Shown here in pieces: positions 51,325-58,992 of a stretch of 64,000 nt of DNA. Under the pieces are notes generated by a model. It made no database searches, had not been told where the DNA came from, and saw nothing but the letters and a program-made list of their open reading frames with translations. The stretch comes from Spirodela intermedia (lineage: Eukaryota; Streptophyta; Magnoliopsida; Alismatales; Araceae), in contig LR746271.1 in NCBI GenBank assembly GCA_902729315.2, positions 5,001-69,000 on the forward strand. Reading direction: 5' to 3'. The first letter of the stretch is position 1. The number at the start of each line of letters is the position of its first letter. The position numbers and the translations under genes were made by a program.

Positions 51325-54300
51325 ATGGCCGCCTCCTCCTGCGACGACGACTTCTCCCTGCTCGGCGACGACGCCGCCGCGGCACAGCCTCACCACGACC
51401 CTAGCCAATCCCATCGTCATCACCATCTTCCTCAGCAGACGCAACTGCAAGCGGCGGCGACTGCAGCCGCCTTCGTGACTCACCGATTTGTGACGACGAA
51501 AGGGCCCGTCCCCGTCCACGCCTCCCACGCCCTGCGCGGCAGTATCAGGAGCCCAAAGAAGTCCACTGGCGTCGACGACGACGAACCTGTCGACTACGGG
51601 GAGGCCTTCGCCGAGGCCGATGCTGCCGCATCTAAGCTCCCTTCCGCCCCCTCCCCCGCCGCCCCCGCCTTCCACGACGTCAATTCCCACCATTGTTTCG
51701 CCAGTACAGACGACGACCCTGTCGCTGCTGCCCCGAACGACTTTCCATCCCAGCTGCCGGAAGATGAAGACGACGAAGGAGACGACGGAGACAGCAATCG
51801 CCACCATCTTGAGAGGAAGGGGAGAGGCACGCCCGGGAGTGGCACTGTTGTCGGATCTCACCCCTCCCGTCCGGATATCAAGCGCAAGGACCGCGAGGAG
51901 CTCAGCGACGGCGGCTCCCCCTACTGCTTCAATAGCGGTGGCAGCGGTAAGAAGCCGAGGCTGTCCTCGTCGATGGACTATCGCAAGGACAGGGAAGAGT
52001 GGAGTGACTCGGCCATCGCGTGCCTGCTAGATGCGTACACAGAAAAGTACGTACAGTTGAATAGGGGTAATCTGCGAGGGAGGGACTGGGAGGATGTGGC
52101 TACTGTTGTGAGTGAGCGATGCGACAAGCAGAAGTCAGGCAAGAGCGTGGAGCAGTGTAAGAACAAGGTTGACAATCTCAAGAAGCGGTACAAGGCCGAG
52201 CGCCAGAGGCTTAGCAGCGGCAATCTCTCGGTTAGTCACTGGCCCTGGTTCAAAAAGATGGAGCAGATTGTAGGCTCGTCGTCAACCTATGCCAAGCCGT
52301 TATCAGAGGACGACAAATCCATTGTGGCTGTTGGGGACGGTTCATCCTCTGCTGCCACTGTCAGGCAGAGCAAGAGGTCCATCTCTTTCATTCCTCTAGA
52401 AATCCTCTTTAGTCTACATGATATTCTTTTTGTGTGAAAGAAGGATGCGGATAAGAACCAGCATTCAAATATCATCGGGAACAGTGTATGGATTACTTTC
52501 AAGACATTGCCTTTTTCTTCAAATTAAGGCTTGAAGTACATCAGAGCATATTTTAAGAAACATCTCAATGTTAAAAGCGTCTGACTCTAGTATATTTAGA
52601 AGAGTATGGATCATTCTGCTTCAGGATCTGCAGGGCTATTGCTTTCGCAATCAACTTTAGAGGGCAGCTGTGTCGATGCCAAAGCTTTTCTTTTCTAGCG
52701 TATTTGATTGTTAAATTTATCATATAGGTAATGTGAAAAACTCTGCTTATCATATAGGCCGTTTATATATGCCCAAACAGCGGTTTTTGCACTTAATTCT
52801 TGTCATCACTTTCGTCATGAAGCTTTACCGGGTATAAATAGTTTTCTGCTTTCTTTTGATCAGTGCTGCCGATAGGTCATCCTAGGATGCATTTTATGGT
52901 AATTTCTTATTAAAGGTGGTTCGCCTTCTGATGTAAGTTCTCTAAAATTCCTAGGTAGCATAAGTTGGCCAATTGTGGCATCGTTGGTGTAGAAGTAGAT
53001 AATAATTCGTAATAAAAACGTAGAATGCGATCCTTGAGAACTTGTTACAAACCTGGAAAATCGCTCCATGTAATGTTTTGGAGTACAATCATGATCAGGA
53101 CTTACTAATGAAGACTGAAAAAAGGGGTAGTATATAATTTTCTTGACATTTGTGGTCAAAGAGGTGTCAGTCACGTAAGCCACGGTATAATTATGTATAC
53201 CTGAGGGATGCTCTCAAACAGGGCTTCCAGGCTAGAGTCCAAGTACTCGAAAGTCTTTACCAAAAAGTGCCACGTGCCCATTTTCATGATCGGAAACGTA
53301 TTTAAGTTTCATTAATGTCTGACTGATTCATGGCATGCATGCTTTAGATCTATTAGACATAAGTAAAAGGAGGATGCAATGAAATCATATAAAGTTTCTA
53401 CTGTCGGCCCACCACTCATGAACATAGTGAGAAATAAGAGGGAAGGTACGATGTCAAACAGAAGAGGAAAAAAATCGGACAAAATGATATGAATTATTTG
53501 TTTTCCACCCCATCACCTGTGAGCACTCCACCTAAAGAAGCAAAATAGTTGGTGAATTTGGTTTCACCAAGTACTTCAGTGATAGCAACCGATGATGTTC
53601 TTGCTAGTGATTTTGTGTAGATTTACACTTTTCCGGCCTCTGGGATCAGGGTAGTGATCCAGAGGGACCGTATGGGATGCCTAATTGTCCTTCTTGAGTG
53701 ACATTGGGTGATAGATTCCAATAGACTATTGACTTTATTACTTTCCTGAAGGACTCTGATTCCAAAGGAGCGGTCAGCGACTATGTCCTTGGGCAGAAAA
53801 ATTATGTAAATGAAAAATTGTGGAGTTTTTTCCAAAGGAACAAGCACAGGAACCTCAACCTGACCAGTAAACTCAACTAAGGATTAACATAAAATATCCC
53901 TCCAAATGTCCAGTTCCTCCATTCATTTCTTTTTGAAACGTTCCAATGGTGGTCCATATAGATTGGAGATGTCAAGAAGAAACGAGTACGTTTCCATTGA
54001 TATGATGGGGACTCTTTTTAAATTTAGACTATGGTGTAGGATATATTAAGAATTAGTCAATTTATGGAAATGTGATGGGGACTGTTGTCGCTTAAATTTG
54101 GACTTGGTGCTCGCCTCTTCATTTTCCATTTGAGGAATGTTTTTTCATGTGCTTTGAAGGAAGATGTTCATTCTATTACTTATTTCAAATCAATTCTTTT
54201 GGAGATCATGAATGGAAGCCGCTTGGATTTTGTCCAGAGAATTAATTTTGGACAGTATGCAGATTGTTCCCTTACATATTTGGCGCTTTCAGAAGACCTT

Positions 54301-57300: not shown

Positions 57301-58992
57301 TGTTATATAATTCATATTTGAATAGACGTTTAGAGAGTATTTTCAATAGTGAATCAGCTGGGTAGCCTTTGGAATTCTGTTCATCCCCCGAAATTCAGTT
57401 GCTTCAGTGAGGCCATTCCCGGGCTTGATCTTGCTACAGAGAAATGTGATAAGGTGCATCAGGAACAGCACCTTATGTTTATATACGATTTGCCCATTCT
57501 GCTACTGATATCTGTATACGATTCCCTCTCTAACTCAGGGTCTGTTAACGGAAAATGTGTCCGAGTCATGTCCTTGAAAGCGAAGCATCTTGGACAGGAT
57601 TTTTGCTTCCTGCGTCAATTAAAGGCAGAATAATATGCGCTTACGTTCAAGTTTCGTAGGGTTTAGCTGGTCATACTTTTATAAATCCCCATCCTCCCTT
57701 TTGTTCGGGGGAGGGTGGGGGGGGTTGTGGTGGGAAGTTCTCTGGTAGTTGGAAGTGGGTGAGAAGAAAACAGGTGTAAAGTGAACACTAGCAACCACAA
57801 TTTAAGAAGATGCTCTCTTCTAACAATTCCAAGTTATCGACAACTACATGTGTACATTTATGTTACCCCCAAGTAACAATAGTTGGCTTTATGCCTATCA
57901 TTTGATCATCGCATATTTTGTATTTCATTCAATTTTTGTACCTTTTGCACCTTTCGATTTCATTGTATATTGTAGGCAAATAACCTTCACGCATCATCTT
58001 TGTTGGATAAGACAGGCAATGGATTTATCTACTCATTGTCTTATTTTTGCCGTAGTTATTTTACTCTTGTATTAAGTTGACAGTTTCCTTAGCGGAAGAA
58101 ATAGTTTTGGCATCTGTGTTTATGATTTCTAGTTTCATATTTTTGTCATATTTCTAACTTCTAGCCTCTGTAGCTGTTCGAGATATGTAGTAAAGTCCAG
58201 GTTTTCCGTTTCTTCTGTTTCTTCTGGTTATGCATCTTCTCTTCGCCACGTTTTTCCCTCAATGCCTTACACTTACCCGCTTGGGTGCTACAGCATGATG
58301 GCGACTGTAATGAACTCTGTGCTGCTTCAAGCATCTCTTGAGAAGATTGGTGTGCAGACACGCGTACAAACATCATTTATGATGCAAGAGATTGCAGAGC
58401 CCTACATCAGAAGAAGGGCAATCCGTCACCTTGAGAAGGGAAGAGTTGTCATCTTTGGTGGTGTTGGTGTCGGAACAGGGAACCCGCTTTTCAGCACTGA
58501 TACGGCTGCTGCTCTGAGAGCCTCCGAACGTAATGCTCCTCGAGCTGACTGCTTTTTATTGAATGCTTTTCATCCGGGTGGGCTCACGAGCATTTAGAAT
58601 CTGAATAGAAATTCAATGTCCCCTTTGTCAGTTGGTGCAGACGCCGTTCTTAAAGGAACGACCGTTGACAGCGTTTTCGAGTGTCATCAGCGGACCAACA
58701 GCCGCGTTCCCTTTGAACATGTGTCATTCAGGGAATTGCTCGCAAGAGGTTTCACAGCCATGGATACGACAGCTATCACTTTCTGCGAGGAGAACAATAT
58801 CCCTGGTCAGTCGTGTAGCCATGCAATGCGAGCACCTGCTTTTGCATCTCTTATTTTGCCCGCCTTGTTAACATGGACCATCTTGCTTGTGCAGTTGTGG
58901 TCTTTAATCTTCTAGAATCTGGGAACATCTCGAGGGCGCTTTGTGGAGACCAAGTGGGCACCCTTGTTGACCAGTCCGGAAGGATCGGTTGA
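51325..58992 (+). CDS. Trihelix DNA-binding domain fused to a uridylate-kinase-like domain (616 aa)
   Basis: Seven exons: 51325-52376, 55608-55752, 55882-55935, 56038-56129, 58294-58529, 58632-58805, 58895-58992. All borders are GT/AG and all phases close. The N-terminus is His- and Asp-rich with an acidic patch ([11 protein letters not shown]) and a basic patch (GSGKKPRL) that could be a nuclear signal. A trihelix domain covers about residues 221-317 ([60 protein letters not shown]), with the Trp, Trp and Trp/Phe core. The amino-acid kinase (PyrH) domain follows at about 365-616: [57 protein letters not shown] loop, [36 protein letters not shown]. Arabidopsis At3g10030 has the same architecture, as I recall it. 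The kinase part lacks two residues known from bacterial UMP kinase (see findings), so activity is uncertain. Intron 1 is 3.2 kb; reading through it gives a shorter trihelix-only product ending at 52437. Confidence 0.9.
55004..55026. repeat. (CT)n microsatellite in trihelix gene intron 1
   Basis: About eleven CT units within the 3.2-kb first intron. Confidence 0.85.
56166..56232. repeat. 33-bp tandem duplication in intron 4
   Basis: CTTTTATCCTAATCAAGTTA followed by CTGGTGCTTTAAG occurs twice in direct succession, differing at one base (GCTTTAAG against GCATTAAG). It lies inside the fourth intron of the trihelix/uridylate-kinase gene. Confidence 0.9.

What the first reader, a model, noticed from the sequence alone, without database searches (positions are those of the whole stretch)
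51325..58992. DNA-binding trihelix domain fused to a uridylate-kinase-like domain in one spliced gene
Seven exons join in phase into one 616-aa frame linking a plant transcription-factor domain to a nucleotide-kinase fold of bacterial or plastid type. Acidic and basic patches before the trihelix fit a nuclear protein. Such a protein could couple pyrimidine nucleotide state to transcription. I recall Arabidopsis At3g10030 having the same layout, so the fusion is probably ancient and kept, but I know of no described function for the pairing.
Basis: partly seen in the sequence, partly recalled or inferred. Interest (0 to 1): 0.75.

Follow-up and report, generated by a model that had tools for sequence, protein, structure and literature searches.

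The report
Plant DNA-binding protein with repurposed kinase
This plant gene joins a DNA-binding domain to a copy of the chloroplast's UMP kinase; the fusion itself was already known, but comparison across plants suggests that the kinase's nucleotide-binding residues were lost stepwise, so it may now be a regulatory module rather than an enzyme.

Summary
Seven GT-AG exons join in phase into 616 aa: trihelix 223-315, UMP-kinase-fold domain 378-589. It is the apparent orthologue, probably in a duckweed, of a known "trihelix/aa-kinase chimera" (At3g10030). All 169 distinct relatives listed carry both domains, from lycophytes to flowering plants.

Added here: (1) The kinase half derives from the nuclear gene for plastid UMP kinase (PUMPKIN): five of six introns share column and phase, the first shares phase and a 145-nt next exon. 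A trihelix exon replaced the transit-peptide exon at intron 1. (2) Nucleotide-recognition residues were lost stepwise: kept in two lycophytes, Arg62 lost in fern-like rows, Gly58 and Arg62 changed in conifer-like rows and Amborella, Asp77 lost in other flowering plants. Here Arg62, Asp77 and Asp174, whose mutation substantially lowers E. coli UMP kinase activity, are C, Y and H.

So coupling to UMP/UTP is not supported as written. Best reading: a nuclear regulator whose UMP-kinase fold is a ligand-binding or oligomerising module, probably not a UMP kinase. Ligand, oligomer and targets are untested.

The parts
51325..52376 (+). exon 1: acidic N-terminus, basic clusters, whole trihelix domain (residues 1-350 and 2 nt of codon 351)
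   Evidence: splice join; Pfam
51880..51960 (+). basic clusters KRK (186-188) and KKPR (209-212), likely nuclear-localisation signal
   Evidence: K/R at 209 in 167, at 210 in 166 and at 212 in 166 of 169 relatives; the role is inferred
51991..52269 (+). trihelix (Myb_DNA-bind_4) domain, residues 223-315
   Evidence: Pfam E 1.4e-16; helical with high pLDDT in the Wolffia model
52377..55607 (+). intron 1 (3,231 bp, phase 2), the fusion point; corresponds to PUMPKIN intron 1
   Evidence: same phase and same 145-nt downstream exon in PUMPKIN
55608..55752 (+). exon 2: linker and start of kinase domain, with K382 and S384
55882..55935 (+). exon 3 (54 nt, as in PUMPKIN)
56038..56129 (+). exon 4 (92 nt, as in PUMPKIN): phosphate-binding loop GGRNFFCG and TAYQIG segment
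56059..56061 (+). R425 codon, at the position of Gly58 of E. coli UMP kinase
   Evidence: G in 79 of 80 bacterial loci, R in 145 of 153 angiosperm-group rows
56071..56073 (+). C429 codon, at the position of Arg62
   Evidence: R in 80 of 80 bacterial loci, C in 145 of 153 angiosperm-group rows
56119..56121 (+). Y445 codon, at the position of Asp77
   Evidence: D in 80 of 80 bacterial loci, Y in 149 of 153 angiosperm-group rows
58294..58529 (+). exon 5: core of kinase domain, helix [17 protein letters not shown] and glycine-rich loop
58463..58471 (+). three-residue insertion in the glycine-rich loop (GGVGVGTG)
   Evidence: full length in 151 of 153 angiosperm-group rows; of the other two, P0095 has 1 extra residue and Victoria (P0014) none; absent in Amborella, 4 conifer-like, 9 fern-like, 2 lycophyte rows, PUMPKIN and 80 bacterial loci
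58632..58805 (+). exon 6: end of nucleotide-binding part; H545 (58685-58687) at the position of Asp174
58895..58992 (+). exon 7: C-terminus and stop

Best explanation
A vascular-plant nuclear regulator, of which one copy was found in this genome. It arose when a duplicate of the nuclear gene for plastid UMP kinase lost its transit-peptide exon and gained, at the same phase-2 intron, an exon encoding a trihelix domain. The fused domain kept the UMP-kinase fold and K382, S384, T509 and T516, but lost in steps other nucleotide-recognising residues; in flowering plants it is probably not a UMP kinase. It most likely works as a regulatory module: the trihelix binds DNA, while the kinase fold oligomerises the protein and/or binds another nucleotide or phospho-ligand to modulate DNA binding. 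Shown by sequence: gene, domains, shared introns, residue losses, conservation. Inferred: nuclear location, loss of activity, oligomer, ligand control.
For: Shared introns: 5 of 6 at the same alignment column and phase, intron 1 same phase, exon 2 145 nt in both. Tree: own PUMPKIN + 36 fusion rows form one clade against 36 bacteria (100/100); the fusions are one clade with PUMPKIN as sister (100/93). Of nine positions (eight phosphate-recognition sites plus the conserved Tyr164), matches to the bacterial consensus: bacteria 8-9 (80 loci), PUMPKIN 9, lycophytes 8 and 9, fern-like 6-8 (9 rows), conifer-like 6-7 (4), Amborella 7, angiosperm group 3-6 (153), window 4. Loss of Gly58 and of Asp77 each needs one change on a tree built without those columns. 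UMP-kinase model scores of the rows tested mostly fall in the same order: PUMPKIN 318, Diphasiastrum 305, two fern-like rows 281 and 285, Cryptomeria 272, Amborella 251, Victoria 251, window 236, Salvia 234, Wolffia 231 bits, cut-off 243.9. The kinase domain stays conserved (mean 73% identity to the window over 169 relatives; trihelix 80.5%, linker 41%), so it seems to be under selection. Acidic N-terminus (6 D/E in 40) against none in PUMPKIN's first 60. Mutation of Arg62, Asp77 and Asp174 is reported to lower E. coli UMP kinase activity substantially (PMC12404492, passages).
Against: No activity, ligand, localisation or oligomer data. R425 lies four residues from the lost Arg62 and could replace it. 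Some relatives depart: Aristolochia (2 rows) has R at 429; 37 of 153 keep Asp at 545. Selaginella, whose site is nearly intact (8 of 9), scores 242.2, under the UMP-kinase cut-off, while the fern-like and conifer rows tested score above it although Arg62 is lost, so the score does not decide. Loss of Arg62 needs three changes on the tree. Only one PUMPKIN sequence was available; the 80 bacterial loci are the best of 541; the plant rows are best hits, which favours fusions.
Confidence: 0.55

Rival explanations
1. Pure scaffold: the UMP-kinase fold is kept only to multimerise the trihelix domains (hexamer or dimer) and binds no ligand.
For: The helix 449-464, which I recall as an oligomer-interface helix in bacterial UMP kinases, is among the best conserved parts (M449, A451, M454, N455, L459, Q460, E464 in at least 98% of 170); nucleotide-site residues are lost.
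Against: K382, D517 and D571 stay invariant in 170 of 170; K382 corresponds to a nucleotide-contacting Lys, which a pure scaffold would not need.
Confidence: 0.22
2. Still an active UMP kinase, moonlighting in the nucleus, as public names (UMP kinase; uridylate kinase PUMPKIN, chloroplastic) imply.
Against: Arg62, Asp77 and Asp174 are all replaced here; mutation of these in E. coli is reported to lower activity substantially.
Confidence: 0.1
3. Active kinase with a new acceptor substrate.
For: Loss of Arg62, which contacts the UDP beta-phosphate in E. coli, with retention of K382, S384, T516, D517; new conserved residues R425, Y445 and a three-residue loop insertion.
Against: No candidate substrate; residue 545, equivalent of Asp174, varies among H, D, N, T, Q and R.
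Confidence: 0.12
4. Two neighbouring genes wrongly joined across the 3.2-kb intron.
For: Unusual donor GTCCAT at 52377; no RNA from this species.
Against: 169 of 169 listed relatives carry both domains, 18 of 120 only from contigs under 3 kb; the junction has the phase of PUMPKIN intron 1.
Confidence: 0.01

Closest known systems
Trihelix/aa-kinase chimera, Arabidopsis At3g10030 and orthologues
   Same: Same domain order as described for At3g10030; fused relatives in lycophytes, ferns, conifers and flowering plants.
   Different: Nothing essential known; the window gene appears to be the duckweed-lineage orthologue (At3g10030's own letters were not compared). The PUMPKIN exon-swap origin and stepwise residue loss were not found in the open-access papers searched.
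PUMPKIN, plastid UMP kinase
   Same: Closest kinase relative found in the same genome, 57% identical over 257 aligned residues, same kinase introns.
   Different: PUMPKIN has a transit-like N-terminus, no trihelix, and all nine UMP-kinase site residues; the fusion has four of nine.
Bacterial UMP kinase PyrH
   Different: Positions of Gly58, Arg62, Asp77 and Asp174 replaced; three-residue loop insertion; fused to a DNA-binding domain.
Molybdenum storage protein
   Different: No DNA-binding domain; about 20-22% identity in the structural alignment.

Membership tests
Trihelix/aa-kinase chimera (At3g10030 family) | trihelix domain followed by AA_kinase domain in one protein | tested here: met
Trihelix/aa-kinase chimera (At3g10030 family) | orthology with fused plant proteins | tested here: met
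   in one clade with 35 other fusion rows, nearest Wolffia; At3g10030's own sequence was not compared
UMP kinase (PyrH/PUMPKIN), as an enzyme | conserved nucleotide-phosphate-recognition residues | tested here: not met
   4 of 9 positions kept; Gly58, Arg62, Asp77 and Asp174 replaced, Tyr164 to Phe (roles)
UMP kinase (PyrH/PUMPKIN), as an enzyme | score above the NCBIfam TIGR02075 equivalog cut-off | tested here: not met
   235.9 against 243.9 bits; own PUMPKIN 318.1. Weak evidence: of the fusions, 2 fern-like, Cryptomeria, Amborella, Victoria and Diphasiastrum pass; Selaginella, Wolffia and Salvia do not
UMP kinase (PyrH/PUMPKIN), as an enzyme | UMP + ATP to UDP + ADP activity | not testable with these tools
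   needs purified protein
UMP-kinase fold (amino acid kinase superfamily) | AA_kinase fold | tested here: met
Trihelix transcription factor | trihelix domain | tested here: met
   Pfam 61.1 bits against cut-off 27; best two other matches in the genome 44 and 48% identical
Trihelix transcription factor | sequence-specific DNA binding | not testable with these tools
   for At3g10030, DAP-seq data are used in PMC7920552 and PMC7516213 (passages)

The most novel reading that the evidence does not exclude
A vascular-plant nucleotide- or phospho-ligand-sensing transcription factor built by exon swap: a plastid UMP kinase was re-aimed to DNA in an early vascular plant while still able to bind UMP, and its catalytic site was then dismantled step by step into a sensor with a new ligand, giving plants a direct route from nucleotide (or related metabolite) levels to gene expression.
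Probability: 0.35. Interest if true: 0.8.

Novelty: new member of a known kind. Interest (0 to 1): 0.5.

Why it matters
[quoted passage not shown] This family pairs a DNA-binding domain with a UMP-kinase fold in lycophytes, ferns, conifers and flowering plants. The living series (site nearly intact in two lycophytes, altered in fern-like and conifer-like rows, dismantled in most flowering plants) makes the question testable by assaying a handful of proteins. Public names that call these proteins UMP kinase or PUMPKIN, chloroplastic are probably misleading.

Tried and rejected
Separate or misjoined genes: rejected. Independent bacterial gene transfer as source of the kinase half: rejected, because it shares intron positions and a clade with PUMPKIN, and both have a tryptophan (W433) that 80 of 80 bacterial loci lack. 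Plastid targeting: unlikely from the acidic N-terminus; no predictor was run. A kinase-only product from exon 2 on: unlikely, since the first in-frame methionines after the trihelix exon are M401/M402, past K382 and S384 (sequence). Search of solved structures with the trihelix piece gave nothing at E 0.001. Neither gives an oligomer. Bryophytes and algae: no named row surfaced in 3 searches that list the best 120 each, so their state is open. Rice: PMC4195496 (passage) says a rice chimera with a C-terminal kinase domain lost its trihelix domain; Setaria and Digitaria rows here keep one. Trees used 73 of 251 rows and 63 of 251. The nine site positions were carried from the Thermus numbering to my alignment by counting along the conserved motifs and the columns. 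That Gly58 and Asp77 belong to the UMP side is recalled; the passages seen place Arg62 at the UDP beta-phosphate. Papers were seen as search listings or passages only, none whole; Kaplan-Levy 2012, Kuromori 2006, O'Malley 2016 and Schmid 2019 were not read.

Full report
Observation. The window holds one gene on the + strand at 51325-58992. Seven exons with six GT-AG introns join to 1851 nt, 616 aa, no internal stop. Pfam finds a trihelix domain (Myb_DNA-bind_4) at 223-315 and an AA_kinase domain at 378-589. The bacterial UMP-kinase model TIGR02075 matches 377-609 at 235.9 bits, just under its cut-off of 243.9. A search of the genome (136.5 Mb, 32 contigs, unnamed) with that model found one other pyrH-like locus, on contig C11. 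The nearest public protein is from Wolffia australiana (89%), which belongs to the Lemnoideae, so the organism is probably a duckweed.

Family. Three searches listed 120 best rows each, 169 distinct proteins in all; all 169 carry both domains in the precomputed annotation. They run from lycophytes (Diphasiastrum, Selaginella) through ferns (Adiantum) and conifers (Taxus, Cryptomeria, Araucaria) to flowering plants. Because only best hits are listed, this says nothing about lineages that did not surface. In print the Arabidopsis member, At3g10030, is called a trihelix/aa-kinase chimera (PMC5526864 table and PMC10755193, passages); a mutant with short stature and distorted, light-green leaves is cited (PMC4783932, PMC6686422, passages); DAP-seq binding data are used in PMC7516213 (751 target genes of 27,206) and PMC7920552, where it is one of the four most methylation-sensitive factors shown. 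So the fusion is not new.

Origin. I spliced the C11 gene. It encodes a 345-aa protein whose first 60 residues hold no acidic residue and 15 Ser/Thr, TIGR02075 318 bits: the plastid UMP kinase, PUMPKIN (named by similarity and recall). Exon lengths are 236/145/54/92/227/177/107 in PUMPKIN and 1052/145/54/92/236/174/98 in the fusion. Five of six introns fall in the same alignment column with the same phase; the pairwise aligner misplaced the poorly conserved start, so intron 1 did not align there, but it is phase 2 in both and exon 2 is 145 nt in both. In a tree of 73 of 251 rows the fusions and PUMPKIN form one clade against 36 bacteria, 13 of them cyanobacterial (100/100), and the 36 fusions are one clade with PUMPKIN as sister (100/93). 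The simplest account is a PUMPKIN duplicate whose transit-peptide exon was exchanged for a trihelix exon at intron 1. Only one PUMPKIN sequence was available.

Active site. PMC12404492 (passages) names the residues of Thermus UMP kinase that recognise nucleotide phosphates and their E. coli equivalents, and reports that E. coli Arg62, Asp77 and Asp174 mutants have substantially decreased activity (it pairs Asp69 of Thermus with Asp77 of E. coli; the sentence on mutants prints Asp69). Counted over 80 bacterial loci (the best of 541), PUMPKIN, 169 fusions and the window, matches to the bacterial consensus at nine positions are: bacteria 8-9; PUMPKIN 9; lycophytes 8 and 9; fern-like 6-8 (Arg62 is H, Q or D in 9 of 9); conifer-like 6-7 (Gly58 to R and Arg62 to C in 4 of 4, Asp77 kept in 4 of 4); Amborella 7 (as conifers); angiosperm group 3-6 (Gly58 to R in 145 of 153, Arg62 to C in 145, Asp77 to Y in 149, Asp174 kept in 37). 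The window has 4. A three-residue insertion in the glycine-rich loop is full length in 151 of the 153 (one more row, P0095, has 1 extra residue; Victoria has none) and absent in Amborella. On a tree built without the scored columns (63 rows) Gly58 and Asp77 loss each need one change, Arg62 three. Results against a tidy story: Aristolochia has Arg at 429 (2 rows); the Selaginella branch is long, so its place is unsure, and it scores 242.2 bits, under the UMP-kinase cut-off, although its site is nearly intact, while fern-like and conifer rows without Arg62 score above it. Meanwhile K382, D517 and D571 are invariant in 170 of 170, and the domain as a whole averages 73% identity to the window (trihelix 80.5%, linker 41%).

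Mechanism. Shown: gene, fusion, exon sharing, residue loss, continued conservation. Inferred: nuclear location (acidic N-terminus; basic KKxK/R cluster next to the trihelix, K/R at 209 in 167, at 210 in 166 and at 212 in 166 of 169), loss of UMP kinase activity in flowering plants, and use of the fold as a ligand-binding or oligomerising module that tunes DNA binding. A pure scaffold, a kinase with a new substrate, or a surviving UMP kinase are not excluded. R425, a new arginine four residues from the lost Arg62, is the main reason for caution.

Novelty. The architecture is known; this is a new member. The PUMPKIN exon swap and stepwise residue loss were not found in the open-access papers searched, a library that misses most subscription journals, among them the primary papers on this gene and on PUMPKIN.

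Noticed in passing
48202-50280 (+): An NPH3-family gene in at least two exons lies directly upstream of the fusion gene; the second piece matches NPH3 only below Pfam's cut-off.
   Followed up: partly
920-5116 and 10426-13707 (+): Two long open frames with endonuclease, reverse transcriptase and zf-RVT domains: LINE-type retrotransposons, the first also with an RNase H-like domain.
   Followed up: partly
25609-27459 (-): Pentatricopeptide-repeat gene with an E motif, 617-aa open frame.
   Followed up: no
60688-63000 (-): Leucine-rich-repeat receptor-like kinase gene downstream, convergent with the fusion gene.
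   Followed up: no
public protein records P0028, P0049, P0090, P0096, P0162: Fused trihelix-kinase proteins are named 'uridylate kinase PUMPKIN, chloroplastic' in public databases, probably a misleading name.
   Followed up: partly
P0023 and P0091 (Aristolochia californica): Arginine is present at the Arg62 position while the Gly58 position is S and the Asp77 position is C, an odd combination.
   Followed up: no
P0063 (Thalictrum): A 769-aa record adds domains PF23916 and PF00704 to the fusion; perhaps a gene-model error.
   Followed up: no
L013, about 5095-5146: The last intron of the PUMPKIN gene is mostly a CT repeat.
   Followed up: no
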